Of a stretch of 41,687 nt of DNA, positions 6,049 to 24,655 are shown in pieces. The stretch lies in assembly GCA_011523735.1 (NCBI GenBank), contig WTGB01000114.1, forward strand, positions 1-41,687. The letters are read 5' to 3'. The position numbers and the translations under genes are program-made. The stretch's first letter is position 1, and every line of letters starts with the position of its first letter. Source of the DNA: Chloroflexota bacterium. Its GTDB lineage: Bacteria; Chloroflexota; Anaerolineae; Aggregatilineales; Phototrophicaceae. The notes beneath the pieces were generated by a model. It was not told the DNA's origin and made no database searches. It saw only the letters and a program-made list of their open reading frames with translations.

Positions 6049-6163
6049 ACGCTCCTTGGCTCGACTTTGCACTGCCAATTCGCCGCGGCGGATGTATCAT
6101 TGGGGCATCCGCGCCTAGTTAGCGGGCAGCGCGAAACCGGCAGGCTTGTGAGGGAGACGCATC

Positions 6164-6802
6164 TTGGAGATCACCTGGTACGGCTACAGTTGCTTTCGCA
6201 TCACCGAACGCGGACATACCACAGTCTTGACCGATCCTTATCTGCCGGCGCTGGACCTGGCTCAGCGCAGTTTGAAAGCGGATCTGGTGACAGTCAGTCA
6301 TGCGGAAGCCGCGGGGCAGGTCGATGATATCCGCGGCGACAAATACGTCATCTCCGCGCCGGGCGAATATGAAATTGGCGAGCTCTTTGTCACTGGCCTT
6401 GCTCTGCACGTCCATGTGGCTGACAGCGATCAGGTGTTGCGAAACATCGCCTATCACTTTGAATATCCTAACGGCCTGAACTTCCTGCATCTTGGCGTCC
6501 TGCATCAACTGCCGGATCAATCCATCATCGAACAGTTTGGCGAAGTGCATGCTCTTCTGCTGCCAATTGGCGGCGCAGCGCTAAGCGGTGACCAACTGGC
6601 GGATTTAATCAGCATGATTGAGCCGAATTATGTCCTGCCGATGCACGCCCCGGACCTCAGCGAAGAAGCTTTTGACCCGGCGCTCGACGGTTTCCTCAAG
6701 GCTATGGGCGTCGCCAGCATCGAATGTCAGGATTCCCTGCGTGTGACCACAGCTGGCTTAAGCGAGCAAACGCAGGTGCTTCGTCTGCTCCCGGCGACGT
6801 AA
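6164..6802 (+). CDS. MBL-fold protein with a degenerate metal site
   Basis: A 212-residue metallo-beta-lactamase-fold protein starting at TTG, with AGGGAG seven bases upstream. Its frame (MEITWYG-SCFRI, LTDPY, VTVSH, SAPGEYEIG, LPMHA) matches a UlaG-like group common in Chloroflexota, whose members I recall carrying YGHSCF and a metal motif of the type SHDHPGH. Here the first His of YGHS is Tyr8, and the HxHxGH motif reads HAEAAG: only H46 remains, and later positions are Glu48, Ala50 and Gly51. The zinc site is therefore probably lost and the protein may not be a hydrolase. It starts 115 bp after the ABC-F gene. Confidence 0.8.
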   Translation: MEITWYGYSCFRITERGHTTVLTDPYLPALDLAQRSLKADLVTVSHAEAAGQVDDIRGDKYVISAPGEYEIGELFVTGLALHVHVADSDQVLRNIAYHFEYPNGLNFLHLGVLHQLPDQSIIEQFGEVHALLLPIGGAALSGDQLADLISMIEPNYVLPMHAPDLSEEAFDPALDGFLKAMGVASIECQDSLRVTTAGLSEQTQVLRLLPAT

Positions 6803-6879
6803 ATGGTCAAGAACCGATTCTCACTCGAATTGCGTTATACTATGTGTACACTGCCAATCTGCGATGAGGGCGTCGCTCC

Positions 6880-7197
6880 ATGCGAAACGGAAACGTCAAA
6901 ATCCTCATGACATGGGATATCAAGCCGGGCTTGGATCAAGAATACTTTGAGTTTGTCATGCGGGAATGGGTGCCCAATACGACCAAACTGGGCTTAACGC
7001 CTATCGAAGCTTGGTACAATGTTTATGCCAGTTCCGATGTGCCGCGGATCATGGCGGGCGCCATCGCGGAAGACGCCAGCGCCATGCGCGACATCATCAC
7101 CAGTTCCGATTGGGCTGACCTGCAAGCCAAGCTCTTCGAATATGTCGAGAATTACAGCCACAAAATCGTTCTCGTCACCGGCGACTATCAACTCTAG
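6880..7197 (+). CDS. small protein resembling dimeric alpha/beta barrel (Dabb) proteins
   Basis: A 105-residue soluble protein. The pattern of a first strand VKILMTWDIKPG, a helix containing YFEFVMREWVPN, and a later strand/helix pair ending in SHKIVLVTGDYQL resembles ferredoxin-like dimeric alpha/beta barrel proteins such as antibiotic monooxygenase or NIPSNAP relatives. No catalytic motif is visible, so no reaction is proposed. TATACT at 6836-6841 could be a -10 box, but I see no -35. A GAGGG lies somewhat far upstream of the ATG. It converges on the LysM gene, separated by 189 bp that hold a palindrome and a terminator. Confidence 0.65.
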   Translation: MRNGNVKILMTWDIKPGLDQEYFEFVMREWVPNTTKLGLTPIEAWYNVYASSDVPRIMAGAIAEDASAMRDIITSSDWADLQAKLFEYVENYSHKIVLVTGDYQL

Positions 7198-7236
7198 ATC
7201 GCCTCATCAACAGCGACTCAAATAGTAGATGTATAG

Positions 7237-7257
7237 GGGCGAGCTACTAACTCGCCC
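7237..7257. repeat. GGGCGA-type palindromic repeat, copy 2 (short)
   Basis: Arms GGGCGAG (7237-7243) and CTCGCCC (7251-7257) with a seven-base loop, preceded by TATAGG, which resembles the GTAGG start of the other copies. Confidence 0.5.
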
Positions 7258-7329
7258 GTCGACGTCAGGCCGCACGCTTTCGGGCTGCCTGCCAGGTCAC
7301 CCGCGCCCAACCCGCTTTCGCCCGCAATC

Positions 7330-7367
7330 CCAAAAGAAAAGGGCGAGACCCGCCGATCCCGCCCTTT
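7330..7367 (-). terminator. Rho-independent terminator after the LysM gene
   Basis: AAAGGGCG (7338-7345) pairs perfectly with CGCCCTTT (7360-7367) around a 14-base loop. On the minus strand the hairpin is followed by TTTTCTTTT, a typical U tract. It lies about 20 bases past the stop of the LysM gene and may also stop rightward transcripts. Confidence 0.75.
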
Positions 7368-7386
7368 AACTAGATATTCTCCGGGA

Positions 7387-8808
7387 CTAGCCGCCCATCG
7401 CCACCCGCAGCGAATCACAAGCGGGGCAGGCGCCGCCGGGCCGCACAATGGCATATCCCGCTTGGGGATCAGAGCCCCAATGCGTGGCGTCGACATTCCA
7501 TACGATATACAAGCGGACATAACCCGAGCCTCGCATACGATGCACCGCGCCCGCCAGCCAGGCCGCCTGCTCCGCCAAGGTATTGTCCGAAGCCCAGGCG
7601 AATCCGCCCGGCAGCGCGCCAATGCCTTCACCGGTCAGGTAGCCGAGCTCGGTGAAGCAGAGCGGTTTGCTCGGGAAGAAGCTCCGATACAAGGTCATCA
7701 TCCGCGGCAGGTACCAGGAATAATGACCGGAACTGCCAACCGGCGCTCCGCTGGTTGCATCGGGCGGGACGATACCGGCGTTGTAGTGGACGCCGACGCA
7801 ATCCATATAATTGGCTGCGCCAGCCGCCTGCATCTGCCGCAAGTAGCAGTCATCATCGCCGCCATTGGGAGTGCAACCCTGGAAGAAGCCCGTGGGCGCG
7901 GGCGCGCCGCTGATCACCAAAGTACCGGGGTTGGCGGATTTGATCGCGTTGTAGGCCGCGCTGAGCATCTGTACGTAATTCGCACCGCTGATCTGCCCCG
8001 CAGGCCACTCGCGGTCAATATTCATCTCATTCCAAACTTCGATGGCGTCCGCGCCGCCGCGCGCCAAATCAGCCAGGAAATTGGCGTAATTCTGATAGAA
8101 TCCGCCCGGATTAGACCCGATCTGATTCTTTTCGCCGATCACGCTCAGCAATACCTTGAACCCGTTGTTGCGGGCGCTGTCGATTAAGTGCTGGAAGTTG
8201 CTGGCGGGTTCGTTGCCATGCCACTTGACCTGGCGCTTCACCCAGGTCATTCCTGCGTTCTTCATGTGGCCTGGATGCGCGAAGCTCAGCGCCTGCCCGC
8301 CCAATTCAAAGCCGCCAGTATTGGCTGTGCTCGGCAGTGGCGCTGCGGTCTCTGGCGTAGTGGCTGTTTCTTCGGCGGGTGGCGGTGGCGCGCCGGGCAC
8401 TGTTAAGACTTGCCCAACATGCAGCACATCCGGATCCGCGATGCCATTCATCCGCGCCAATTCAATGTAAGTCGTGTTGAACTGCGCCGCGATAGTTGAC
8501 AGGTTGTCGCCGCGCTGAACCGTGTAGGTGGTCGTGCCCGTCGGCTGCTGCTCCTCTGGCGCCGGGGCGGGGGCTTGCGTCACGCCGCCAACGGGCGGGA
8601 TCGTGAGTTGGTTGCCCGCATGAATAATATAGGGCTCGCTCAAACCGTTCGCCTGTGCGATTTCTTCAACCGTGCGGTCATATCGTCGCGAGATGCTATA
8701 TAGTGTTTCGCCCCGTTGCACGACGTGTACTTGCTGAGCCATAACTGCGGCTGATCCCAGCGACAGCATAACCAGCATGGTTAATATCAAAATGGTTAGA
8801 CGGCGCAT
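7387..8808 (-). CDS. secreted LysM protein with a glycoside hydrolase-like TIM barrel
   Basis: The start at 8808 is chosen because AGGAG precedes it and the first 24 residues then form a clean signal peptide ending in VMAQ; an upstream in-frame ATG at 8844 would bury the signal. The 473-residue product has two LysM domains (about residues 25-72 and 95-140) for binding peptidoglycan or chitin-like glycans, a Pro/Thr/Ala linker, and a catalytic-type domain of about 300 residues. That domain carries VWNEMN (E261) and CFTELGY (E387), the acid/base and nucleophile positions of clan GH-A glycosidases such as family 39. The glycan substrate is unknown. A terminator follows the gene, and a TATACT box at 8845-8850 may be its -10. 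Confidence 0.85.
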   Translation of the reverse strand: MRRLTILILTMLVMLSLGSAAVMAQQVHVVQRGETLYSISRRYDRTVEEIAQANGLSEPYIIHAGNQLTIPPVGGVTQAPAPAPEEQQPTGTTTYTVQRGDNLSTIAAQFNTTYIELARMNGIADPDVLHVGQVLTVPGAPPPPAEETATTPETAAPLPSTANTGGFELGGQALSFAHPGHMKNAGMTWVKRQVKWHGNEPASNFQHLIDSARNNGFKVLLSVIGEKNQIGSNPGGFYQNYANFLADLARGGADAIEVWNEMNIDREWPAGQISGANYVQMLSAAYNAIKSANPGTLVISGAPAPTGFFQGCTPNGGDDDCYLRQMQAAGAANYMDCVGVHYNAGIVPPDATSGAPVGSSGHYSWYLPRMMTLYRSFFPSKPLCFTELGYLTGEGIGALPGGFAWASDNTLAEQAAWLAGAVHRMRGSGYVRLYIVWNVDATHWGSDPQAGYAIVRPGGACPACDSLRVAMGG

Positions 8809-8844
8809 ATCCGCTCCTTGCTTGACAAATGCACTCGAAGTCAA

Positions 8845-8850
8845 AGTATA
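8845..8850 (-). promoter_or_regulatory. possible -10 box of the LysM gene
   Basis: On the minus strand TATACT lies about 37 bases upstream of the chosen start codon. No good -35 is seen at 16-18 bases, so this is weak. Confidence 0.3.
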
Positions 8851-8969
8851 CGCAAGTCATTCTAGCATCGGTCGATAAATCGCGCTGAAGCTGCGTCAAG
8901 CATTATGTCGGCGTCCGCCGTTGGCAGGAAATATGAATGCTGGTAAAAAACCTTGGGGGCAGAATAGTT

Positions 8970-9860
8970 CTAATGACCGATTTCCATGCCCAAATCCACC
9001 AGCGGCAGTCGCGGATCTATGCCCGGCAACACATCCCGCACCCAACTGAAATCGGGATCATCGCTATAGGCGAAGTCGCGGGTCGAGCCGGCCAGGAAGT
9101 TTAAGGTGTAGGTCACTGTGCCCGGGGCGCTGACCATCGTATAGTAACCGGCGGGCATCAGAACAATATCGTGCTGGCGCGCCATCATCCGGGCGTCCCA
9201 GCGCTTGTCGACGGCATAGACGCGCTGATAGGCATATCCGGTCGGTCGGTCGAACTTGTAGAAGCTGAAGCGGTTCAGTTGCGCCTCCAGCACCTTGCCG
9301 CGCTCATCAGTCTTGTGTGTATCATGCTTGTGCGGCGGGTAGCTCGACCAATTGCCGCCGGGCGTGTACAGCTCATACACCAGCAAGCGATCCGCCGGGA
9401 AGGCGCCGCCGATGATTCGGCACATCTGCCTTGAGCAATTGCCGCCGCCCAGCAATTGCACTTCGATGTCCCGCGGCTTAATCAGTTGGGCTTGCGCCTC
9501 TCGCTCGGATGGCGCCCAGCAGGAAGCGAACTCGAAGTTCTCGCTCAGCGATTCGATGGCGAATTCTGTGTGCGGCGGCAGGTAGACCGCGTATGGCAAG
9601 CCGCTGAAGACACTGTCGCGCCGGCCCAGCTCCTCGAAGTCGCCCTTGTTGCTGCGGATATTGCAGCGTCCGCTTAATACCACCGCCACGTATTCAAAAG
9701 CATCGATGGCGACCTCGAAAGTCCGGCCTTCGCCCAGGCGCACGGCGGCGAAATTCATCGTATCCCAACCGGCGCGTTTGGCGTCCAGCGCAGCGAATGC
9801 GCCCGCTCGACCGCTGTCCTCAGCCGGAAAGTGCAGGCTGTCGGCAGTGTATGTCGCCAT
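8970..9860 (-). CDS. iolB: 5-deoxy-glucuronate isomerase
   Basis: A 296-residue bicupin enzyme of myo-inositol catabolism that converts 5-deoxy-glucuronate to 2-deoxy-5-keto-gluconate. Recognised by the C-terminal cupin motif YPPHKHD (metal-binding His pair), followed by YKFDRPTGYAYQRVY, QHDIVLMPAGYYT and the ending FSWVRDVLP, all characteristic of IolB. The length is close to the family norm. GGGAG lies seven bases before the ATG. The gene begins 17 bp after the ABC ATPase gene and is the last of a three-gene leftward run, yet no other inositol gene is adjacent; the Gfo/Idh/MocA gene near 30 kb could be a dehydrogenase for such polyols, but that is only a guess. Confidence 0.92.
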   Translation of the reverse strand: MATYTADSLHFPAEDSGRAGAFAALDAKRAGWDTMNFAAVRLGEGRTFEVAIDAFEYVAVVLSGRCNIRSNKGDFEELGRRDSVFSGLPYAVYLPPHTEFAIESLSENFEFASCWAPSEREAQAQLIKPRDIEVQLLGGGNCSRQMCRIIGGAFPADRLLVYELYTPGGNWSSYPPHKHDTHKTDERGKVLEAQLNRFSFYKFDRPTGYAYQRVYAVDKRWDARMMARQHDIVLMPAGYYTMVSAPGTVTYTLNFLAGSTRDFAYSDDPDFSWVRDVLPGIDPRLPLVDLGMEIGH

Positions 9861-9877: not shown

Positions 9878-10834
9878 TTAAGTCACCAAACCACGGGTGA
9901 CGCGCATGAACATGTGCTCCAGATCTTTCTCTTCTTCGTTGAAGCCCAGCAGCAGAACATCGCCTTCAAAGAGCTGCCGACTCAAAGCGCCCAATTCTTC
10001 ATCGTTGCCAGCGAAATCGACCCGCACCCGCGCCCGGCCGTTCTTAGGTGTGATGATCTCGGCGGCGGCGACCTGCCCAACACCGCTCACCAGGCTCATC
10101 ACAATCTCAGCGACATCATGATTCATCACCGTAACGATGATTTCCCGATGCGCCATCAACTCCAATTTCAAGTCATCAATGCTGCCCTGCATGATCAACT
10201 CGCCCGCTTCCACAATGCCGATATGCGAGCAGACATCTTCGACATCAGCCAGGATATGCGACGAAAAGAATATCGTCTTGCCCATATTCGCCAGTTCGCC
10301 CAGCAGCTCGCGGATTTCCACCCGCGCCCGCGGATCCAAGCCCGAGGCCGGCTCGTCCAGGATCAGCACCTGCGGATCGTGCGCCAGCGTGCGCGCCAGC
10401 GACAGGCGCTGCTTCATGCCCCGGCTGAGCTTGTCCACCATCTCCTCGCGCCGATGCTGCAAGTCAACCAGCTCAAGCAAGTCCGCCACCAACACCTTGC
10501 GCTGATTTTCCGGGATATCGTAACAAGCGGCGAAAAAATCCAGATATTCCCAGACGCGCAAGTCCTCATACACGCCGAACTCGTCGGGCATATAGCCGAT
10601 GGCTCTTCGCACCGCCCGCCGATCTTCCAACACCGAATGACCGGCAACCCAAGCCTGCCCGCTCGAAGGCCGGGTCAAAGTCGTCAATATGCGCATCGTT
10701 GTCGTTTTGCCAGCGCCGTTGGGACCGACGAAACCGTAGATCGAACCAGCCGGCACTTCCAGCGAGATGCCGCGCAGCGCCTCGAAATTGCCGAAGGACT
10801 TGTGCAAGTCATAGGTCTTGATTATCCAGTCCAT
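9878..10834 (-). CDS. ABC transporter ATP-binding protein
   Basis: A 318-residue single-domain ABC ATPase. Walker A is GPNGAGKTTT (from G37), the signature is LSRGMKQRL, and the Walker B region is VLILDEPASGLDP; after about residue 230 there is an accessory domain as in export-type ATPases (DrrA, CcmA and GldA relatives). Such subunits normally work with a separate ABC-2 permease, but none is encoded next to it. The gene lies between the large membrane protein (20 bp upstream) and iolB (17 bp downstream), so the three are probably co-transcribed. GGAAGAGG precedes the ATG. The transported substrate is unknown. Confidence 0.92.
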   Translation of the reverse strand: MDWIIKTYDLHKSFGNFEALRGISLEVPAGSIYGFVGPNGAGKTTTMRILTTLTRPSSGQAWVAGHSVLEDRRAVRRAIGYMPDEFGVYEDLRVWEYLDFFAACYDIPENQRKVLVADLLELVDLQHRREEMVDKLSRGMKQRLSLARTLAHDPQVLILDEPASGLDPRARVEIRELLGELANMGKTIFFSSHILADVEDVCSHIGIVEAGELIMQGSIDDLKLELMAHREIIVTVMNHDVAEIVMSLVSGVGQVAAAEIITPKNGRARVRVDFAGNDEELGALSRQLFEGDVLLLGFNEEEKDLEHMFMRVTRGLVT

Positions 10835-15160: not shown

Positions 15161-16609
15161 ATGTCTCTGCTCCTTATCGACCTGGGCAGCTCATCCGTCC
15201 GCGCTCTGCTCTTTGACGATTCGGCGCAGCTGATTGACGGCTCCATCCACAGCCGCCGCTGCGATTTCGATACCGATAGCGCGGGCCGAGCAACCGCCGA
15301 TGCCATCGTCTTGAAAGCTTTGGTGGAAAGCTGCATCGACGAGGTCTTGGGGCATCCAGCCGCAGCGGCGATCCGCGCCGTGGGCTTGGCGACCTTCGCC
15401 GGCAACTGGCTGGGTTTGGACGCCGCCGGCGCCGCTTGCACACCCGTCGTGACCTATGCCGACACCATGGGCCGCTCCGAGATTCCAACCTTGCTAGAGA
15501 AGCTCGATGGCGATGCCGACGCCTATCATCAAGCCACCGGCTGCATGCTACATCCCGCCTACCTGCCGGCACAATACACCCATCGGCGCCGCAGCCGCCC
15601 CGCATCGGAAAAGAAAATCCACCGCCTCAGCGACATCGGCGGCTATCTGTATCGGCAATGGTTCGCTCGCGAGATGCCGATGAGCCTGTCCCTTGCGAGC
15701 TGGTCCGGCTTGCTGGATACGAAGCGGCGTGACTGGCATTGGGACTACGCCCGACTGTTGCTCGGCGACGGTTTCTTGGATAAGCTGCCGCCCCTCGCCG
15801 AGTACGATCAGGTTCAAACGGGCTTGGGAGGAGACTACGCCGCCCGCTGGTCCCAATTGCGTGATGTGCCTTTCTTCCTGGCGCTGGGCGATGGCGCGGC
15901 CGCCAATATCGGCTCCGGCGCCCTCGATTCCCGCCACATCGCGCTGACGGTCGGCACCACCTCAGCCCTGCGCGTCATCAAGACGATTGAGCCTGTCCCG
16001 CTGGGCCTATGGCGCTACCTGGTCTGTGCCGATATGCCGCTGGTCGGGGGCGCCACCAGCGAAGGCGGCAACATCTATCAATGGGTGGTGGAAGACCTGC
16101 TGCGCGAAACCGACCGGCTCAATGCGGAATTGGAAAAACGTCAAGCTGACTGTCACGGGCTGACCGTGCTTCCACTGCTGGCTGGCGAGCGCAGTCCGGG
16201 CTGGCAGCCGAATGCCGCCGGCACCATCCACGGAATTCGCCGCAACACTAGCCGCCTCGATATCTTGCAGGCTCACCTCGAAGCGGTGGCGCTGCGCCTG
16301 TCGCTGATTTTCGATCTGCTCAAGACCCAAGAGGCCACGGTCATGGCGGGTGGCGGCGCTCTGCAGTCATCGGCAGTCTGGGCGCAGATGATCGCGGACG
16401 CCTTCGATTCGCCGCTGCAACTGCTGGCTGAAGCGGAGATCACCGCCCGCGGCCTGGCGCTAATGCTGCGGCGCAGCCTGGACGGAGAAGCGCTCGCACA
16501 GCGACCACCGCAGGTCAGCCGCGTCATTCAACCCGACCCGGCCGGGGTCGCCTCCCTGCGAGCCGCACGCGAACGGCAAATCGACCTCTATCAGCGCCTC
16601 TACTCTTAA
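15161..16609 (+). CDS. FGGY family carbohydrate kinase (gluconokinase-like)
   Basis: A 482-residue sugar kinase of the FGGY superfamily. The N-terminal phosphate loop is LIDLGSSSVRALLFD; the second domain has GDGAAANIGSGA, LTVGTTSALR, GGATSEGGNIYQW and the C-terminal MAGGGALQSSAVWAQMIADAF with the adenosine-binding glycines. The DGAAANIGSG-LTVGT pairing is closest to gluconokinases, but xylulo-, glycero- and other kinases share the frame, so the sugar is uncertain. The ribosome binding site is weak. It probably follows the aldo/keto reductase in one transcript, with a palindrome between them. Its TAA stop lies inside a TTAA shared with the stop of the convergent dehydratase. Confidence 0.85.
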   Translation: MSLLLIDLGSSSVRALLFDDSAQLIDGSIHSRRCDFDTDSAGRATADAIVLKALVESCIDEVLGHPAAAAIRAVGLATFAGNWLGLDAAGAACTPVVTYADTMGRSEIPTLLEKLDGDADAYHQATGCMLHPAYLPAQYTHRRRSRPASEKKIHRLSDIGGYLYRQWFAREMPMSLSLASWSGLLDTKRRDWHWDYARLLLGDGFLDKLPPLAEYDQVQTGLGGDYAARWSQLRDVPFFLALGDGAAANIGSGALDSRHIALTVGTTSALRVIKTIEPVPLGLWRYLVCADMPLVGGATSEGGNIYQWVVEDLLRETDRLNAELEKRQADCHGLTVLPLLAGERSPGWQPNAAGTIHGIRRNTSRLDILQAHLEAVALRLSLIFDLLKTQEATVMAGGGALQSSAVWAQMIADAFDSPLQLLAEAEITARGLALMLRRSLDGEALAQRPPQVSRVIQPDPAGVASLRAARERQIDLYQRLYS

Positions 16610-17571
16610 GTGCTTTGCCTCTCCAGCAGCTTAGCATAGCGCGCCACATCCTCAGCCGAATCGTTGCAGCCGCAGATCAATAGCACAAGCTCGTTTTCCG
16701 CTGACAGGCGGTCCTTGATCGCTTCGGCGGCGGCGAGCGTGCTGGCGGCGGCCAACTCCGGGCATATACCCTCGTCTTGTATGAAGCGCTGCTGCGCCGC
16801 GATCATATCCAGGTCGCTAACCAGAATGAGGTCTTCTAAATGCTCGCGACACAGGTCCAATGCTGCCCGTCCGACGAAAGGCGCGCCCAGTGTCTTCGAT
16901 AGAGAGGCCGGCTTGATATTGACGATTTCGCCAGCCTCCAGCGCGCGCTGCATTGTCGGCGCGGTCTCCGGCTCGACGCCCCAAACGCGGACCGCCGGCT
17001 TCACCGCTTTGACAGCCGCGATAATGCCGGCGATGAGTCCGCCGCCGCCGATACTGACGATGATATCCGTCATCCCCGGGCAGTCCTCCAGTATCTCCAG
17101 CGCGACGACGCCGTTTCCCGCGATCTGCGCCGGGCTATCAAAGGGATGCAGATTTGTGCGTCCTCGCGCTAACCACTCATCGGCTCGGGCAAATGCCGCG
17201 ACCGCGTCCGGCAGCAATTCCACCTTCGCGCCATAATCCCGCGTCGCGTCGATCGAGTTACCCGGCGCATTCTCCGGCATGCACACGATGGCATCGACGC
17301 CGAGCACGCCGCTGCAATAGCCAACCGCCCGCGCGAAATTGCCGCCGCTGACCGCCACCACGCCGCGACTTAAGGCGGCGTCTCCCAACTCAAGCATCTG
17401 ATGGAAGGCGCCGCGCGTCTTGAACGAGCCGCTATGCTGCCCCATCTCCAGCTTGAGCTGCGTGTTTACGCCCAGCCGTGCGCTGAAGAATGGTGAATGA
17501 CGCTGCGGTGTACGAAGGGTGTACCGCTCTACATTGGTCTTTGCGTTGTGGATATCTCTCAGTGTGACCAT
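16606..17571 (-). CDS. PLP-dependent threonine/serine dehydratase-like enzyme
   Basis: A 321-residue fold-type II PLP enzyme. The Schiff-base lysine is K51 in SGSFKTRGA; SGGNFARAVGY binds the substrate carboxylate, and SIGGGGLIAGI is the glycine loop for the PLP phosphate. The length and lack of an ACT regulatory domain fit the catabolic threonine dehydratase/serine racemase group, which deaminates threonine or serine to 2-oxoacids. Threonine synthase or related ammonia-lyases are less likely. It stands alone, convergent with the FGGY kinase with a four-base stop overlap. No strong ribosome binding site is seen before the ATG. Confidence 0.88.
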   Translation of the reverse strand: MVTLRDIHNAKTNVERYTLRTPQRHSPFFSARLGVNTQLKLEMGQHSGSFKTRGAFHQMLELGDAALSRGVVAVSGGNFARAVGYCSGVLGVDAIVCMPENAPGNSIDATRDYGAKVELLPDAVAAFARADEWLARGRTNLHPFDSPAQIAGNGVVALEILEDCPGMTDIIVSIGGGGLIAGIIAAVKAVKPAVRVWGVEPETAPTMQRALEAGEIVNIKPASLSKTLGAPFVGRAALDLCREHLEDLILVSDLDMIAAQQRFIQDEGICPELAAASTLAAAEAIKDRLSAENELVLLICGCNDSAEDVARYAKLLERQST

Positions 17572-17730: not shown

Positions 17731-19827
17731 CTAGCAGCTGCCGCTTGTGCGCACGTAATCGCCGCTGATCCAGCCCAAAATTCCGTCAAAGCGCACGGCG
17801 TACCAGCCGGTCGATTTCGCGGTCGGCGACAGTCGGGTTCCAAGCGGGATTATGATATCCAGCAGGTCGCCGGCTGGCGCGGCGCGGAAGTTGACGCCGG
17901 CGGTGGTGGACACCTGACAATTGGCAAGCGGCACGATAGTCGATTTGACTTCTCCGTCTACCTGCGACGCCGGCAGAAGCGTAGCAAATAGAACCACCGT
18001 GCCCGGCTGGTCAATCCAGCCGCAGGTCATGCTGCCGACGCGGTAGGCCAGCAGCTCCATCATCCGCCGTACGGGGCCGCTCATATCCAGGAAAATTAGC
18101 GAGCCGTGCTCACGGAAACAGACTTGAACACCGGTCTCCAGTTCCCCGCTGATGTCGACGGCATCGAGGAAGCCGGTCAGCAATTGCAGGCCGCTGGTAT
18201 CGAGCGCGCGACATTCAATGCTGCTATTGACGGATGTAACTAGAATCGAATCCGATACCGCCTCGCAAGCTTCGGGCGTGGGCGTGGTCGGCGGCGGAAC
18301 GCTAACTGTTTGCGCGGCTGGCGGGATCGAAGCTTCGAGCCAGGGATCAACCTCAAGCGCCTGCGCACTCTCGCGCACACTGGCTGTGCCATCCATTAAT
18401 GTAGCGTAATAGTCGAAAGCCATATCGCCGAAGGTATTGCAAATAGCGGCGCTCGCCTCGACCGCGGCCGGAAAATGCACACCGGCCCAGACGCGGGCTT
18501 GGCCACAGTTTGCGGCGAAATCTGTCCAGGTGTCGAAGGTCAAAGTGGTAGCGCGCGCCGGTGTGACACCGGGTTCAATCCGCGAGCCGCCGGCCGGGTA
18601 ACTGATGCTCCAGTTGAGATTGTCGCTGCCGGTGAAGCGCCTCATCGCTTGCGCAGTGGCATAACAGCCACAGGTGGAGCCGGACGGGTATTCCGGGTGG
18701 TCGGCTTCTGGCAGGTAGGCTTGCCAGTCGCTAGCCGGGATTTCTCTCCGGCCGGCGCCGGGACCGCCCCAAGCTGTCACCAACTCGTCGCCATAGATGT
18801 GTCGAATGGCGCTGAAGGGACGGACGCCATCGTAGCGCGCTTTTTCCTGCCAGATGACGATTGACGCATCCAGCGCGGCCGCGACCTTGACGAGATAACC
18901 GCGGGCCGTATCGGCCGGCGACAGGTCGAGCTCTTGCACTAGGTGAGTATAGGATAGACCGAGCGAGACGATCTTGTTATCGAAAAGCTCCGCCATCAGT
19001 TTCTGCTCATCAGTCAGGTTGGCCGAGACTGCCAGCACGGCGTCCGCTTGCTCTTTATAGGCATCCCAGTTGTTGACATCGCTGGCGCTCGGCGGCGGCA
19101 CGCGCAAGCTGCGCGGGTCAAAGGGCGCGAAGGGCTCGACATTAGCCAGCTGCGGCGTGACGAAGTGCTGCACGGTGTAAACGCCCGCGCCTTGCAGCCG
19201 CAGGCCCGGCTGCCAGCGGGATGGATCGCGCAGGAAGAAGGCGGAATTTACCGGCATGTAGCCGGTTGTGTCTTGGTAATTGCCTCTCTGGTTCATGCCA
19301 TCGTCCAGCCGTCCTTCGAGCGCGCCGATGCCGGCGACATTTCCGATGCCCACGGCCGTATCAAGATCTTCGCTGTCATCATCGGGGTTCAAGCCATAAT
19401 CAAACAGCATATCACGCCAGACCGGCGCGCGATCGGGCAGCAAGCCAATCAGCGTGTGATAGGCCGCATGCAGCATGGCCGTGTTGATGTTGCGATCAGT
19501 ACGCTCGTCTCCCGGCCGACGTGGTATTCGCGTATACATGCCAACCGCCGTGGCGTGATAGGGCGCGGCCGCGTCGACCATGCCCAGCGCAATGATGAAG
19601 TTGAGGCGGTTTATCAAGGTGGCATCGCCCAGTGACGGCGATACATCCATGGCGATGATCGGATAGAGCCGCGGCAAAATCACATCAGCAAGCGGGTCAA
19701 TTGTTTCGATCAGGGTCCGTGAGGCTTCGCTGCCAAGCAAGCCTTGACCCTGTACCAATGGCGCATACTGGACCATCACCATGAACAACGATGCAAATAC
19801 ACAAATGGAAAACACCTTCCGTCGCAT
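17731..19827 (-). CDS. secreted vanadium haloperoxidase/PAP2-like protein with SH3b domain (copy 1)
   Basis: A 698-residue protein with a signal peptide (cleavage near VQGQG). The start at 19827 is set by AGGGGG seven bases upstream. About residues 40-480 form a vanadium haloperoxidase-type helical domain: KARYDGVRP gives K329, R336 and P337 (the K-x6-RP vanadate motif), HPEYPSGS gives PSG with Ser384 where the acid-base His normally stands, and RVWAGVH gives R445 and H451 (the vanadate-linked His). After a Pro-rich linker come a Cys-containing beta-rich segment and a C-terminal SH3b domain (NFRAAPAG to GWISGDYV). Known relatives oxidise halides with H2O2 or hydrolyse phosphate; the substituted His makes either uncertain. 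It is a tandem paralogue of the gene at 20222-22282, with its own consensus promoter and terminator. Confidence 0.85.
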   Translation of the reverse strand: MRRKVFSICVFASLFMVMVQYAPLVQGQGLLGSEASRTLIETIDPLADVILPRLYPIIAMDVSPSLGDATLINRLNFIIALGMVDAAAPYHATAVGMYTRIPRRPGDERTDRNINTAMLHAAYHTLIGLLPDRAPVWRDMLFDYGLNPDDDSEDLDTAVGIGNVAGIGALEGRLDDGMNQRGNYQDTTGYMPVNSAFFLRDPSRWQPGLRLQGAGVYTVQHFVTPQLANVEPFAPFDPRSLRVPPPSASDVNNWDAYKEQADAVLAVSANLTDEQKLMAELFDNKIVSLGLSYTHLVQELDLSPADTARGYLVKVAAALDASIVIWQEKARYDGVRPFSAIRHIYGDELVTAWGGPGAGRREIPASDWQAYLPEADHPEYPSGSTCGCYATAQAMRRFTGSDNLNWSISYPAGGSRIEPGVTPARATTLTFDTWTDFAANCGQARVWAGVHFPAAVEASAAICNTFGDMAFDYYATLMDGTASVRESAQALEVDPWLEASIPPAAQTVSVPPPTTPTPEACEAVSDSILVTSVNSSIECRALDTSGLQLLTGFLDAVDISGELETGVQVCFREHGSLIFLDMSGPVRRMMELLAYRVGSMTCGWIDQPGTVVLFATLLPASQVDGEVKSTIVPLANCQVSTTAGVNFRAAPAGDLLDIIIPLGTRLSPTAKSTGWYAVRFDGILGWISGDYVRTSGSC

Positions 19828-19884
19828 CAGGATCCCCCTTTTTCGGAAGCGCATTAAGTTGCATTGCACTAGACAAGGTCGCGG

Positions 19885-19913
19885 AGTATAGACTTGTGGA
19901 AATTCGATGTCAA
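19885..19913 (-). promoter_or_regulatory. consensus sigma-70 promoter of haloperoxidase-like gene 1
   Basis: On the minus strand a perfect TTGACA (19913-19908), 17 bases, then TATACT (19890-19885). Transcription would start near 19878, giving a leader of about 50 bases. Immediately upstream (19915-19966) the DNA is very AT-rich and holds two direct copies of ATCTCATAAA (19930-19939 and 19943-19952), suggestive of an UP element or regulator site. Confidence 0.75.
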
Positions 19914-20039
19914 CCGTATTTTGATATATATCTCATAAAAAAATCTCATAAATATAAAAAATACTACCATTCGGAGGCACGGTTAAGCTAGCGATAGATC
20001 TGCCGTCGATACCCGGCTTTGCAGGAATTGGCGTGAGCG

Positions 20040-20138
20040 TCACTCAAATCCGAGCGCGGGGATAGAGGCGATGCAACTGCTGTCCGGTTCGTGGAGGGGC
20101 GTTTCAATAAAGGCTAACGGCGACCACTCGCGCAGCCG
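20040..20138 (-). pseudogene. C-terminal remnant of an alpha/beta hydrolase paralogue
   Basis: Translated leftward, 20114-20040 reads AFIETPLHEPDSSCIASI then PALGFE and a stop. This aligns without gaps to the C-terminus of the hydrolase at 22467-23936 (AFIDEPLEEPDSSCLASI, then RAIEFD, stop), with 16 of 24 residues identical. DNA similarity continues to about 20138 but with small insertions and deletions that break the frame, and no further upstream part of the hydrolase is present. The remnant precedes haloperoxidase-like gene 1 at about the same distance (212 bp) as the intact hydrolase precedes gene 2 (184 bp). The rest of the 19.9-20.2 kb gap shows no gene. Confidence 0.8.
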
Positions 20139-20221
20139 CCTCAATATGTTGCAACGTAATCATATCGCTTGTCACCTTGTCGTCATTGGACGAGTTGCGG
20201 CTCCAACAGGCGGATTACTCT

Positions 20222-22282
20222 CTAACAGCCGCTACTCGCCTGGACGTAATCACCGCTGATCCAGCCGGTTCTTCCGGCGAATTGGACATTATACCAGTTG
20301 GGCGTTTTCTCGGTGACAGGAAGCCGCGCGCCCTTCCGGATGAGACCAATAATATACCCGCCTGGAGTTCGACGGAAGTTGAGAAACTCCGCCGTGGTAG
20401 TCACCAGGCATTCCTCCGCTGGCTGGGGCGGCGAGGCCATCAGCATTACCGTGCCGGGCTTGTTGATCCAGGCGCAGGTCGAGCCGGTTATTTGATAACT
20501 CAGCAATTCATGGAAACGAGGGACGATACCGTCGTTTTCCAGCATGACGATTGAGCCGGGCTGGTCGAAACAAACTTGAGCGCCAAAGTCCAACTCGCCG
20601 GAGATGACAACGGCGTCAAGAGAATTTGACAGCCCCGATAAGCCAGTCATGTCCACCCCTTCGCAAGTCACGCCGTTATTGACTGCTGCGACCGAGACAG
20701 AGTCGTCGACGAATTCGCATGATTGTGGCGTTGGGTAGGTGTTTTCTGGCACGACGACCGTTGGCGCGGGCATTTCCCTCGCGGCTTCGAGCCAGGGGTC
20801 TGCTGCCAGAGCCTGTGCCGGCTGCCGCAGCGCCGCGCTGCCATCCATCAAAGATTGATAGTACTCGTAAGCGCTATCGCCGAAAGTGCTGCAATAAGCC
20901 GCGCTGGCCTCAATGGCATCGACGAAGTGGACGCCAGCCCAATGCCGCGCCATCCCGCAGGCTTCGGTGAAATCAGACCAGGTTTCAAAGGTCAGGGTCA
21001 TATCGCGGCTTGGCGTCAAGCCCGGCTCAATCCGCGAGGTGCCGACGGGATAACTGATGCTCCAATTCAGCTCATCAGTGCCGCTGAAACGCCGCAGGGC
21101 TTGCGCATGGGCATAACAGCCGCATGTGCTGCCCGAGGGATATTCCGGGTGGTCGGGCTCTGGCAAATACGCTCGCCATTGATTCGCTGGTATTTCCCGG
21201 GTCCCTTCGCCTGGACCGCCCCATGCCGTCACCAAATCGTCCCCGTAAACATAAGAAATCGCGCTGTTTGGACGGACGGCGTCATAGCGCAGCTTCTCCT
21301 GCCAAGTCACGATCGAGGCGTCCATCCAGGCTGATACCTTGAGGAAATAGCCGCGCGCGATATCGGCCGGCGACAAATCCATTTCCTCCGTGAGATGGAT
21401 ATAGGATAAGCCAAGAGAAGCGATCTTGTTGTCGAAGAGCTCGGCTTTCAGTTTCATCTCATCGCTGAGGTTCGCCGAGGTCACCAGCACGACATCCGCT
21501 TGCGCTTGGTAAGCCTCCCAATTCTCCGGCTGGCTGGCAACTGGCGGAGCGACGCGCAGCGCGCGCGGGTTGAAGAGCGCCATCGGCTCCATGTTGGACA
21601 GTTGCGGCGTTACAAAGTGCTGCACTGTATACACGCCCACCCCTTGCTGGCGCAAGCCCGGCTGCCAGCGGGACGGATCGCGCAGTTCGAAAGCCGTGTT
21701 GACCGGTACGTAGCCAGTTGTATCCAGGTAGTTCCCCGTTTGATTGATGCCATCATAAAGTCTGGCATCGTGCGCGGATTTGCCGGCGACATTGCCGATG
21801 CCGACCGCTGTCCTCAAGTCAGCGCTCGTGTTGTCCGGGTCCAAGCCGACATCGCGCATCATATCGCGCCAGACGCTTTGACGCTCCGGCAGCAAGCCCA
21901 TAAGCGCATTGTAGGCGCCGTGAAGCATCGCCGTGTTGATATTGGAGTTTGTCCATTCTTCTTGGGGCCGCCGCGGTATGCGGGAATACATGCCCACAGC
22001 TGTCGGATGATAAGGCGCCGCCGCGTCAACCATGGCAAGCGACACGATAAACCGGAATCGATTAATCAGCGTCGCGTCCCCCAGCGTAGGCGATATATCC
22101 GCGCCGATGATGGCGTAAAGGCGCGGCAAGACTACTTGGTGAAGCGGGTCTGGCGATTCCGCCACATCAAGAGCGATCTCCGCGCTTGGCAAGCTCTGCC
22201 CCAAGGTCAGACCGCCTGACAGCAATCCGCAGAGAATCAGCAACCGGAGGAAACTCTTGGTGATTTCCGCGTACTTTTGCAT
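20222..22282 (-). CDS. secreted vanadium haloperoxidase/PAP2-like protein with SH3b domain (copy 2)
   Basis: A 686-residue paralogue of the product at 17731-19827, similar along its whole length. The signal peptide (MQKYAEITKSFLRLLILCGL...) differs from copy 1, while the catalytic-type domain is closely conserved: KLRYDAVRP (K330, R337, P338), HPEYPSGS with Ser385 in place of the usual His, and RHWAGVH (R446, H452). The Cys-containing beta segment and the SH3b tail (LNFRRTPGG to GWISGDYV) are kept. AGGAGGGTGA precedes the ATG. It lies 184 bp downstream of the alpha/beta hydrolase on the same strand and may share its transcript. A TATCAT at 22315-22320 could be its own -10, but no -35 is seen. 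Substrate unknown; probably acts outside the membrane. Confidence 0.85.
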   Translation of the reverse strand: MQKYAEITKSFLRLLILCGLLSGGLTLGQSLPSAEIALDVAESPDPLHQVVLPRLYAIIGADISPTLGDATLINRFRFIVSLAMVDAAAPYHPTAVGMYSRIPRRPQEEWTNSNINTAMLHGAYNALMGLLPERQSVWRDMMRDVGLDPDNTSADLRTAVGIGNVAGKSAHDARLYDGINQTGNYLDTTGYVPVNTAFELRDPSRWQPGLRQQGVGVYTVQHFVTPQLSNMEPMALFNPRALRVAPPVASQPENWEAYQAQADVVLVTSANLSDEMKLKAELFDNKIASLGLSYIHLTEEMDLSPADIARGYFLKVSAWMDASIVTWQEKLRYDAVRPNSAISYVYGDDLVTAWGGPGEGTREIPANQWRAYLPEPDHPEYPSGSTCGCYAHAQALRRFSGTDELNWSISYPVGTSRIEPGLTPSRDMTLTFETWSDFTEACGMARHWAGVHFVDAIEASAAYCSTFGDSAYEYYQSLMDGSAALRQPAQALAADPWLEAAREMPAPTVVVPENTYPTPQSCEFVDDSVSVAAVNNGVTCEGVDMTGLSGLSNSLDAVVISGELDFGAQVCFDQPGSIVMLENDGIVPRFHELLSYQITGSTCAWINKPGTVMLMASPPQPAEECLVTTTAEFLNFRRTPGGYIIGLIRKGARLPVTEKTPNWYNVQFAGRTGWISGDYVQASSGC

Positions 22283-22466
22283 AGTTCACCCTCCTGTACC
22301 TCTACTTGGAGGGTATGATAGCGTTGAATCGGCGAGAAACTGGACGGCTCGCCTACGCATTGCTTACTGGCAACCGCCGCTGCGGTGAATTATGAACCAG
22401 AGAGGGCAAGATTATCGCGAAAATCGCCCTGTCGTTTGCCACGCCGAACGGTTTGGCAGCCGCCGC

Positions 22467-23936
22467 TCAGTCAAATTCGATCGCGCGGATGGAGGCGAGG
22501 CAACTGCTATCGGGTTCTTCCAGCGGCTCGTCGATGAAGGCTAAAGCGATGCGCACCGCGCAGCGATGCGACCGCAGCACCCCGTGCCCGATATGCGGCA
22601 GGATGTAGCTGAACGCGGCGACCAAGGTTTCCTCAGCCTGCTCGGCATAGGACGGTGGCGTGATCGGATCATAATTGCCTGAAAGCAGGAGGGCGGGCAC
22701 GCTGCTATGCACCGGGCTATTCGCCAGCGGCGGCCGCGCTTCCGCCCGGAAGATTTCACATAGTCGACCCAAGGTCTCTGTCCCCTCGACGGGATAACGC
22801 AGGAAGCCGCTCAGATGCGGGAAACGCGACAACATTCCGGCATAGTCGCGATTCGGCGCCGAACCGTATTCTTCCTGGCACTGCACCGTGTAATGCATGC
22901 CCAGGCTCAGCGCGGTCATGGAGGCTTCAACGGTCATGCCCGCCCGTGCCGCATCCTGTGATCTGCCCTGCGCCAGATCGTAAATCAGGCGCGGGATCAG
23001 TTGTATCGAATCGACCTCGTAGAGCCAGCTAAAGGTCCAGTCATAGAGTCGATAACCGCTTATTTCTATATTTAGCTGTTTGTAGCGCGGTGGCGTGATA
23101 GTCGCCAGTGCCGGCTCGTGATTCAAGCGCTCGTATAGTTTGTAGAAAACATCTTCGAGATCGGGGTAACGCCTGTTGCAACTCTCGGATGCCTCGCAGG
23201 CGGCGAAGAGCAGGCTCAGCGCTCGCTCGCCGTTGTAATAGGAATCGAGATAGATATCGGCTTGCGGCGGATAGACCGAATCGAGTATGACGCTGCGCAA
23301 ATGCTGCGGATAATCGCGCATCAGCGCCAGCGCCAGCCGCGATCCATAGGAAACGCCGACCAGGTTCCACTTCTCATATCCCAGCGCCAGCAAGACGTTG
23401 ACGATATCACGCGCGTTGTTCTCGCTGTGAAAGGCAGCGAACTGCACGCGTTTGTCCGATAGTCGACTGTGGCAATCAGTCAGGATCTCGAGCATCAATT
23501 CGGCATGATCGGCATGATGGCTCTGCAAAATCTCGTCCAGGCGAAACAGCGCTTCGCGGCAATATAGCGGCGGATTGGATAAACCGGTCCCGCGTTGGTC
23601 AATCACGATGATATTGCGGTCGCCAGCGAAAGCGCGCAGATACTTGCGAAACGATGTATCTAATAGCTGCGTCCCGCTGCTGCCCGGACCCCCAACCAGA
23701 TAGACCAACGGATCGGGCTTTGGTTCCGAATTGCGGCTCTGTATCAGGGTATAAAAGATTTCCACATTGCCGGCGCGGGGCTTGTTATAATCTTGCGGCA
23801 GGGTCACATAGCCGCAGCGCGTGGCATAGCCGGTCGGGCTCACCATACATTCGGCGCCCTCGTGAATGCCTTGCGCGCCTGCGCCAGCAAGCGTCAGACA
23901 AAGTGCTATTGCTGCGAAGCCAAGTCTGAGGATCAT
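22467..23936 (-). CDS. secreted alpha/beta hydrolase (tripeptidyl aminopeptidase/proline iminopeptidase-like)
   Basis: A 489-residue alpha/beta hydrolase with a signal peptide (to about residue 22, AGAQG). YVTLPQDYNKP and LVYLVGGPGSSG (oxyanion region), DQRGTGLS, the nucleophile elbow GVSYGS with S196, the acid in GNYDPITP (D423) and HIGHG with H451 give a complete triad. The lid region and C-terminal part resemble the TAP-like group that releases N-terminal peptides or proline, but esterase activity is possible. Cysteines near the N-terminus and in the tail (EPDSSC) suggest an exported enzyme with disulfides. No strong ribosome binding site is visible. A remnant of a paralogous copy lies at 20040-20138. 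It precedes haloperoxidase-like gene 2 and may be co-transcribed. Confidence 0.88.
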   Translation of the reverse strand: MILRLGFAAIALCLTLAGAGAQGIHEGAECMVSPTGYATRCGYVTLPQDYNKPRAGNVEIFYTLIQSRNSEPKPDPLVYLVGGPGSSGTQLLDTSFRKYLRAFAGDRNIIVIDQRGTGLSNPPLYCREALFRLDEILQSHHADHAELMLEILTDCHSRLSDKRVQFAAFHSENNARDIVNVLLALGYEKWNLVGVSYGSRLALALMRDYPQHLRSVILDSVYPPQADIYLDSYYNGERALSLLFAACEASESCNRRYPDLEDVFYKLYERLNHEPALATITPPRYKQLNIEISGYRLYDWTFSWLYEVDSIQLIPRLIYDLAQGRSQDAARAGMTVEASMTALSLGMHYTVQCQEEYGSAPNRDYAGMLSRFPHLSGFLRYPVEGTETLGRLCEIFRAEARPPLANSPVHSSVPALLLSGNYDPITPPSYAEQAEETLVAAFSYILPHIGHGVLRSHRCAVRIALAFIDEPLEEPDSSCLASIRAIEFD

Positions 23937-24161: not shown

Positions 24162-24201
24162 CCCCTCACCCCCGGCCCCTCTCCCACACGAGGGAGAGGG
24201 G
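24162..24201. repeat. CCCCTCTCCC/GGGAGAGGGG palindromic interspersed repeat
   Basis: CCCCTCTCCC (24176-24185), loop ACACGA, GGGAGAGGGG (24192-24201): a perfect ten-base stem, preceded by CCCTCACCCCCGG. Elements of this form are scattered in many bacterial genomes, by my recollection. It belongs to a repeat-rich non-coding stretch (23937-24691) in which I see no convincing gene. Confidence 0.7.
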
Positions 24202-24242
24202 AGCTAAGTTTGGCGGGGCGATTGTTAGCTTTTCGTTTGTGT

Positions 24243-24323
24243 ATTGTCCGACATTGTCCGTTTTCGGACAAAGAAAAATGTTTTTCGGACAATAGGCATA
24301 GTTTTCTGGCTGAAACGGACAAT
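24243..24323. repeat. cluster of five ATTGTCCG/CGGACAA motifs
   Basis: ATTGTCCG at 24243-24250 and 24253-24260, then the reverse orientation at 24265-24272 (CGGACAAA), 24286-24293 and 24316-24323 (CGGACAAT). The second and third form a perfect inverted repeat TTGTCCG-TTTT-CGGACAA. This may be an operator cluster or a remnant of a mobile palindrome. It lies 360 bp upstream of the glycosidase gene. Confidence 0.6.
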
Positions 24324-24655
24324 AAGCAGAGAGCCGTTGGTATGATTTTGGTTTGCATGCGAGCCGGCGTCATAGAGCCCTGAAAATATCTCAGCTGGCC
24401 CGATAAATCGGCAAGTGTATAGACACAGTATAGATACGGGGCGGCGAAGGCGGGAATTCGAGGACGGAATTCGCAGAGAGCCGAGATTGAGCGCATGAGA
24501 CAGTGAAGGCCATAGGGACAGTGTATCATCATTTTGCGCAGGTGGGAAGAACAAATGTTCACGTATTTCATACGGTTTTTATCTCTCCCCAGCCCCGTCC
24601 TCCTCATCTCTAGCGCGCGTAGGTCGCGCAAACAGTTCTCACTGCCCTCCGCGCT

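What the first reader, a model, noticed from the sequence alone, without database searches (positions are those of the whole stretch)
17731..23936. Duplicated hydrolase-haloperoxidase unit with one hydrolase copy decayed to a C-terminal relic
On the minus strand the order is hydrolase, haloperoxidase-like 2, hydrolase remnant (20114-20040), haloperoxidase-like 1. The remnant matches the last 24 codons and stop of the intact hydrolase (shared HEPDSSC/EEPDSSC and ASI segments) and sits at nearly the same distance before copy 1 as the intact gene does before copy 2. The simplest reading is tandem duplication of a two-gene unit, followed by deletion of most of one hydrolase. It implies the hydrolase and peroxidase-like protein once formed a functional pair.
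Basis: seen in the sequence. Interest (0 to 1): 0.75.

Follow-up and report, generated by a model that had tools for sequence, protein, structure and literature searches.

The report
Two haloperoxidase gene loci spliced together
Between two neighbouring haloperoxidase-like genes of a bacterium lie leftover ends of two other genes, and the two haloperoxidase-like genes are not each other's closest relatives, so the second one was likely spliced in from a related strain rather than made by copying the first.

Summary
In detail: minus strand 20114-20040 matches the last 24 codons and stop of the intact hydrolase H (22467-23936); no such relic was found in 57 stretches from relatives. [quoted passage not shown] fails four tests. 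(1) Directly before the hydrolase relic lies an unreported second relic, the first 19 codons of a PALP-family (threonine/serine dehydratase-like) gene (20175-20119); the join is start-of-PALP to end-of-H, out of frame. (2) The two haloperoxidase-like genes are not sisters (AU p = 2e-8). (3) The spacer before copy 1 does not resemble the spacer before copy 2. (4) The hydrolase relic fits the hydrolase of relative G076 better than this genome's own (9.25 lnL units; 0 of 600 simulations), though it is only 72 bases. Best reading: two versions of one locus, H-P2-PALP and H-P1-PALP, were joined, illegitimately on one side and likely by homology inside PALP on the other. In close pairs of relatives the start of PALP differs whenever its upstream neighbour differs, which suggests repeated exchange of haloperoxidase genes at this site. 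H has no haloperoxidase beside it in 10 of 34 genus genomes, so an obligate pair is not implied.

The parts
22467..23936 (-). H: intact secreted-type alpha/beta hydrolase (TAP-like C-terminus), 489 aa
   Evidence: Abhydrolase_1 5e-20 and TAP-like 1.4e-9; GVSYG in 33 of 33 H proteins; candidate Ser196 and His451
20222..22282 (-). P2: haloperoxidase-like protein copy 2, 686 aa (DUF6851 + VCPO_2nd + SH3_3)
   Evidence: in a 12-row clade with the first P after H of 7 relatives
20119..20175 (-). palp': relic of the start (19 codons, GTG start) of a PALP gene
   Evidence: 38 of 45 bases match G079's PALP start and 34-36 of 45 those of G071, G065, G077, G066, but only 20 of 45 the window's own intact PALP; a 28-mer from it occurs with 5 or fewer mismatches only at those five PALP starts in the window and 57 stretches; blastx alone is weak, E 0.006
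20115..20118 (-). join between palp' and h' (out of frame)
   Evidence: frames of the two relics differ; sequence; parental sequences laid side by side
20040..20114 (-). h': relic of the last 24 codons plus stop of a second H gene
19828..20039 (-). spacer before P1 with a promoter-like site TTGACA-17-TATACT (19913-19885)
   Evidence: of 15 spacers and flanks compared, none clearly similar; G071's was highest, 7 of 200 shuffles as high; consensus match 11 of 12, but the scan found 5 sites against 4.0 expected
17731..19827 (-). P1: haloperoxidase-like protein copy 1, 698 aa
   Evidence: P1-type clade of 17 rows with G082's H-adjacent copy and G095
16606..17571 (-). PALP: intact PLP-dependent enzyme (threonine/serine dehydratase-like)
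   Evidence: PALP 1.9e-63; first 20 codons 35-45% identical (DNA) to the P2-adjacent PALP genes of five relatives against 73-80% for codons 31-79
22283..22466 (-). H-P2 spacer, shared with H-P2 spacers of relatives
   Evidence: local scores 109, 78, 77, 57 with G076, G080, G071, G079 (no shuffles were run for this spacer, shuffles of the P1 spacer reached at most 30)

Best explanation
The second haloperoxidase-like gene (P1) likely came from a related strain whose locus read H-P1-PALP, and was joined behind the resident H-P2 so that the scar holds the first 19 codons of one PALP gene fused to the last 24 codons of another H gene. Shown: the two relics and their out-of-frame join, the non-sister relationship of P1 and P2, the dissimilar spacers, and a better fit of h' to G076's H than to the window's own. 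Inferred: incoming DNA [end of H - P1 - start of PALP] paired by homology inside PALP on its right end, and its left end was joined without homology (perhaps over a few shared bases) to the resident PALP start just after P2, as in homology-facilitated illegitimate recombination. The net effect would be gain of a second, divergent haloperoxidase-like gene without loss of H, P2 or PALP. Inferred more widely: the H-PALP interval is a site where haloperoxidase-like genes are exchanged, because in close pairs of relatives the start of PALP differs when its upstream neighbour differs. H and the P proteins are predicted to be exported enzymes (serine hydrolase; vanadate-dependent haloperoxidase of the NapH1 kind); activity is untested.
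For: The P tree of all 40 matches and a 101-row tree put P1 and P2 in different clades; sisterhood rejected, AU p 2.1e-8, and the three second copies (G000, G076, G080) as one clade rejected, p 1.5e-6. h' sits on the G076 end branch, 9.25 lnL above the own-H branch; relics simulated from the own-H branch reached that difference in 0 of 600; site bootstrap 849 of 1000. rpoB, IF-2, H, x15161 and PALP trees pair G076 with G079, apart from G000, so h' is not what descent predicts. palp' matches the P2-adjacent PALP type. For PALP pairs at least 82% identical in codons 31-79, the first 20 codons are 73-97% identical in 22 pairs with the same upstream neighbour and 55-65% in 9 pairs with a different one (pairs are not independent: G069 gives 5 of the 9). 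The order H-P1-type-PALP exists in G082, and a relic most like P1 lies between H and P2 in G065. G080 has a short PALP-start-like stretch after its first P. The P1 and P2 protein clusters (3 and 2 contigs) both list a longest contig of 100,674 bases, against a chimera in this one contig.
Against: h' is only 72-75 bases; 151 of 1000 site bootstraps prefer another of the seven branches tested, 87 of them the own-H branch. No genome with H-P1-PALP and a G076-like H was found. Placing P1 with the 12-row P2 clade is not rejected (p 0.108). P1's nearest relative among the genomes searched, G095, is another genus whose P lies away from its H relative. PALP starts are variable in general between distant pairs, which weakens the replaced-start argument outside close pairs. 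H tails do not clearly change with the downstream neighbour (88 against 84%, and 82 against 75% with 3 pairs), so the left border of ordinary exchanges is not mapped. The x14083 tree, which lacks G079, puts G000 near G076 and G085 with weak support (0.24). G080's PALP-like stretch gave no blastx match, and G065's relic is nearly as close to P genes away from H (101 against 106 bits).
Confidence: 0.72

Rival explanations
1. Local tandem duplication of H-P (or H-P-PALP) in this lineage, followed by deletion from the start of PALP copy 1 to the end of H copy 2 and fast divergence of P1.
For: Order and orientation are those of a duplicated H-P-PALP unit with an internal deletion. 87 of 1000 site bootstraps put h' on the own-H branch. 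P1 inside the wider P2 clade is not rejected (p 0.108).
Against: P1 and P2 not sisters, p 2.1e-8; P1-P2 nt identity 65% and pS 0.68, against 85% and pS 0.35 for P2 and its G076 counterpart, so the P1/P2 split looks older than the species split while h' looks younger; spacers dissimilar.
Confidence: 0.1
2. The mirror image: H-P1-PALP was resident and the H-P2-palp' part is the newcomer, anchored by homology in H and joined illegitimately at its right end, so h' is the resident's own displaced H end (as 3' ends are displaced in T6SS and Rhs arrays).
For: Same final structure; a P1-type gene beside H exists in G082, and a relic most like P1 in G065. Intact PALP keeps a non-P2-type start.
Against: Then h' should look like the G000 lineage, but it fits G076's branch; H of G000 shows no obvious mosaic switch along its length (by eye); P2 broadly follows the species tree in 8 genomes, G071 excepted, which suggests that P2 was already resident.
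Confidence: 0.13
3. Assembly chimera of strains in the metagenome.
For: The window is one contig (C122) of a 169-contig draft genome.
Against: The relics are decayed and no identical donor was seen; the P1 and P2 protein clusters are seen in 3 and 2 contigs with the same longest contig length, 100,674.
Confidence: 0.03

Closest known systems
Homology-facilitated illegitimate recombination (PMC3240628: abstract and outline seen; the Acinetobacter, Streptococcus and Pseudomonas work seen only as citations in PMC5361080)
   Same: One end of a linear incoming DNA integrates by homology, the other by illegitimate joining; foreign DNA is gained.
   Different: Here inferred from an old, decayed scar between related loci, with a gene start and a gene end at the join; no transfer was observed.
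Immunity-gene arrays of Vibrio T6SS clusters and Rhs orphan 3' ends (PMC5361080, passages seen)
   Same: Stepwise arrays at one site, duplication set aside because alleles within a genome do not cluster; orphan 3' gene ends left behind; HFIR proposed.
   Different: Those are effector/immunity modules with a conserved upstream anchor; here haloperoxidase-like enzymes, and the likely anchor is the downstream PALP gene.
NapH1/NapH3-type vanadium-dependent haloperoxidases (PDB 3w35, 8cxl, 9ptr, 9l8x)
   Same: P1 and P2 align over about 410-450 residues at E 5e-102 to 2e-116, with K-x6-RP, PSGST and R-x5-H as in NapH1 and 9l8x.
   Different: P1 and P2 add a C-terminal region with an SH3-like domain (P1's below Pfam's cut-off); 9ptr and NapH3 differ at the PSGST motif; activity and vanadate binding unknown.
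TAP-like secreted serine hydrolases (Hip1/carboxylesterase A type, PDB 7sfm, 5bkm)
   Same: Alpha/beta hydrolase with TAP-like C-terminus and GxSxG.
   Different: Sequence match covers only residues 39-228 at E about 6e-14; substrate unknown.

Membership tests
Local tandem duplication | the two copies are each other's closest relatives | tested here: not met
   P1+P2 sisterhood rejected, AU p 2.1e-8
Local tandem duplication | flanking spacers are copies of each other | tested here: not met
   score 14 against shuffle mean 16.4
Local tandem duplication | relic closest to the gene of its own genome | tested here: not met
   G076 branch better by 9.25 lnL; 87 of 1000 site bootstraps prefer own H
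Homology-facilitated illegitimate recombination product | one border without homology | tested here: met
   PALP start joined to H end, out of frame
Homology-facilitated illegitimate recombination product | other border in homologous sequence | tested here: inconclusive
   PALP start differs while the body follows descent; border not resolved, and PALP starts vary in general
Homology-facilitated illegitimate recombination product | short shared bases at the illegitimate join | tested here: inconclusive
   TCGCGC occurs at the join in G079 PALP and G076 H by eye, but the scar itself has diverged
Homology-facilitated illegitimate recombination product | incoming segment of foreign origin | tested here: met
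   h' placement and P1 phylogeny, within the limits of 72 bases for h'
NapH1-type vanadium-dependent haloperoxidase | domain family and vanadate-site motifs | tested here: met
   VCPO_2nd 5.5e-52 (P1) and 2.6e-49 (P2); motifs in P1, P2 and NapH1; that these are the vanadate site is recalled
NapH1-type vanadium-dependent haloperoxidase | vanadate-dependent halide oxidation | not testable with these tools
   needs enzyme assay
TAP-like serine hydrolase | Ser nucleophile motif and C-terminal His | tested here: met
   GVSYG in 33 of 33 and a His in the [AG]H[GA][VAT]LR motif in 33 of 33; the roles are recalled, not tested

The most novel reading that the evidence does not exclude
The gap between the hydrolase and the PALP gene is an exchange slot: haloperoxidase-like genes of several lineages are swapped in and out there by recombination anchored in PALP, each swap replacing the first 20 or so codons of PALP, and a failed join turns a swap into a tandem array. 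This would be an enzyme-gene counterpart of Rhs and T6SS orphan arrays, readable from PALP starts alone.
Probability: 0.55. Interest if true: 0.5.

Novelty: new variant of a known kind. Interest (0 to 1): 0.4.

Why it matters
It corrects a common reading: two adjacent, same-family genes with a relic between them look like a duplication but are here better explained by joining two divergent versions of one locus. It gives a concrete scar with both partner genes named, and a cheap test (the start of the downstream gene) for gene exchange at a fixed site. If haloperoxidase-like enzymes are swapped this way, they may be under local, strain-level selection.

Tried and rejected
Rejected: tail motif common around these loci (tail search over 57 stretches and the window: no second case, next best E 0.03). 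Rejected: the scar as a fused gene (the two relics are in different frames). Rejected: P1 and the second copies of G076 and G080 as one clade (p 1.5e-6); all 16 copies at the H-PALP site as one clade (p 1.1e-8). Rejected: H-P as an obligate pair. Not supported: H tails changing clearly with the downstream gene, the mirror test of the PALP-start effect. Papers: 'homology-facilitated illegitimate recombination' is held by 49 papers, 10 listed, two opened in part; 'vanadium-dependent haloperoxidase' with Chloroflexota 0; 'gene remnant', unequal crossing, bacterial genome, tandem together 0; haloperoxidase + Chloroflexi + sponge 6, listing only; tandem/xenolog terms 20, 8 listed, listing only.

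Rows left out: G070's partial H was left out of the 33-row H tree; the 101-row P tree adds 61 proteins of 650 aa or more from P0002-P0082, leaving out P0053 and those sharing stretches with rows already in, and itself lists the best 120 of 1476; G071's PALP enters by its first part only because the gene holds a masked stretch; the simulations and site bootstrap of h' compare seven branches of the four-genome clade, the full set of branches only.

Full report
What is in the window. The minus strand reads H (23936-22467), P2 (22282-20222), a gap of 394 bases, P1 (19827-17731), PALP (17571-16606). H is an alpha/beta hydrolase with a TAP-like C-terminus; P1 and P2 carry DUF6851, the VCPO second helical-bundle domain and an SH3-like domain (P1's SH3 match is below Pfam's cut-off); PALP is a PLP-dependent enzyme like threonine/serine dehydratases. 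P1 and P2 are 63% identical. In the genome the only other near-full-length relative of H is 31% identical, beside one 69-residue partial match, and there is no third full-length P.

The relic is real. The 75 bases 20114-20040 match the last 24 codons and the stop of H: 58 of 75 bases to the window's own H, 63 of 75 to H of relative G076. In blastx against 98 locus proteins the match to G076's H has E 1.7e-7. No other such relic was found in 57 fetched stretches. It starts at codon 466 of 489, after the candidate catalytic His451, so it cannot be a working enzyme part.

A second relic. Directly upstream, 20175-20119 encodes VTSDMITLQHIEAAARVVA, the start of a PALP gene. Over 45 bases it matches the PALP start of G079 at 38, G071 and G065 at 36, G077 and G066 at 34, and the window's own intact PALP at only 20. 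A 28-mer from it occurs with 5 or fewer mismatches only at the PALP starts of those five relatives, in the window and 57 stretches; by blastx alone the match is weak (G071, E 0.006). Those five are the relatives in which P2 is directly followed by PALP. The bases between P2's stop and this relic also resemble the P2-PALP gap of G066 and G071 by eye. The two relics are in different frames. G080 has a similar but shorter stretch between its two P genes (15 identical bases, then a gap; no blastx match) and no hydrolase relic.

The locus in relatives. All 34 genomes of the genus have H (G070's is partial). From: 12 of 34 have a P beside H (three of these, G000, G076 and G080, have two), 10 of 34 have H followed directly by PALP, and 12 of 34 show neither in the stretch held (contig ends or other genes; G085 has H on one contig and P-PALP on another). 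P was found at E 1e-60 in 31 of 98 family genomes, 30 of the 34 of the genus (G062, G063, G070 and G093 have none); in many it lies elsewhere, for example among transporter-permease-like genes (by sequence look only).

P1 and P2 are not sisters. In the tree of all 40 matches P2 lies in a 12-row clade with the first P after H of G076, G079, G080, G066, G071, G077 and G065, plus the second copies of G076 and G080, and P of G085 and G064. P1 lies with G095 (another genus; 99/94) and, less firmly, G082's H-adjacent copy (90/69). With 61 more proteins P1 falls in a 17-row clade (local support 97) that includes G082. AU tests reject P1+P2 (p 2.1e-8) and the three second copies as one clade (p 1.5e-6), but not P1 held together with the 12-row clade (p 0.108). 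All 16 copies at the H-PALP site as one clade is rejected (p 1.1e-8; at least 4 changes of site on the tree).

The relic is likely not from this genome's own H. On the DNA tree of 33 H genes, h' belongs on G076's end branch; the own-H branch is 9.25 lnL worse and the stem of the four-genome clade 10.6 worse; 0 of 600 relics simulated from the own-H branch reached that difference; 849 of 1000 site bootstraps agree and 87 prefer the own-H branch. rpoB, IF-2, H, x15161 and PALP trees pair G076 with G079, not with G000; the x14083 tree lacks G079 and is unresolved (0.24). So h' looks younger than the P1/P2 split and likely foreign, with the caution that it is 72 bases.

Spacers and PALP starts. 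The h'-P1 spacer shows no clear similarity to 15 spacers or flanks (G071's is borderline, 7 of 200 shuffles as high), whereas the H-P2 spacer scores 109, 78, 77 and 57 with those of G076, G080, G071 and G079. Among 22 PALP genes (231 pairs), pairs at least 82% identical in codons 31-79 have first-20-codon identities of 73-97% when the upstream neighbour is the same (22 pairs) and 55-65% when it differs (9 pairs: five with G069, G076-G079, G075-G073, G083-G066 and G083-G065). The contrast shrinks in distant pairs, because PALP starts vary in general. The mirror test on H ends showed no clear effect. This suggests that P exchange usually has one border inside the start of PALP.

Mechanism. The simplest history is that DNA from a relative with H-P1-PALP entered a genome with H-P2-PALP; PALP gave the homologous border; the other end, in the last codons of the donor's H, was joined illegitimately to the resident PALP after codon 19. 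H beside a P1-type gene is not hypothetical: G082 has it, and G065 keeps a C-terminal relic between H and P2 that is most like P1 (106 bits), though P genes away from H score nearly as well (101 bits). The mirror history (P2 as newcomer) gives the same order but predicts a native h'. A full H-P2-PALP-H-P1-PALP array with later deletion cannot be told from a direct join by structure alone, but its copies would still have to be of mixed origin.

Known kinds. This is how homology-facilitated illegitimate recombination is described (PMC3240628, abstract), and close to the model for Vibrio T6SS immunity arrays, where co-resident alleles do not cluster, duplication is set aside, and 3' gene ends are displaced (PMC5361080, passages). 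What differs is the cargo, haloperoxidase-like enzymes, and the downstream anchor.

Function. P1 and P2 keep the K-x6-RP, PSGST and R-x5-H motifs seen in NapH1, and change between relatives is mostly synonymous (P1-G095 pN 0.19, pS 0.67; P2-G076 pN 0.09, pS 0.35), so both are likely working genes. Export is inferred from hydrophobic N-termini only. Record titles of three genus relatives (Anaerolineae bacterium, Chloroflexi bacterium) suggest that the genome is of Chloroflexota.

Noticed in passing
L076 (G065) about 8840-9170, minus strand: C-terminal relic of a haloperoxidase-like gene between H and P2, best match to the window's P1 (60% over 80 aa, 106 bits; next 101 bits, a P away from H).
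   Followed up: partly
L071 (G080) about 9849: PALP-start-like stretch (15 identical bases, then a gap) between the two P genes of G080; no blastx match.
   Followed up: partly
L072 (G079) 7640-8300 and 10532-10826: Gaps on both sides of P2 are filled with repeated GC-rich units (GGGGCGTCCCTACGG and GGCTCGCCCCTACGG kinds), seen by eye.
   Followed up: no
window 24165-24336: Low-complexity block (ccctcacccccggcccctctccc) and two CGGACAATA(A/G)GCA units in the divergent gap upstream of H.
   Followed up: partly
proteins P0004 and P0029: Both list a longest contig of 20,704 bases, so another tandem of a P1-type and a G080-second-type gene may exist.
   Followed up: no
L084 (G065) 4620-8404: Another pair of shorter haloperoxidase-like genes in the same orientation, from two different clades of the P tree, away from H.
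   Followed up: no
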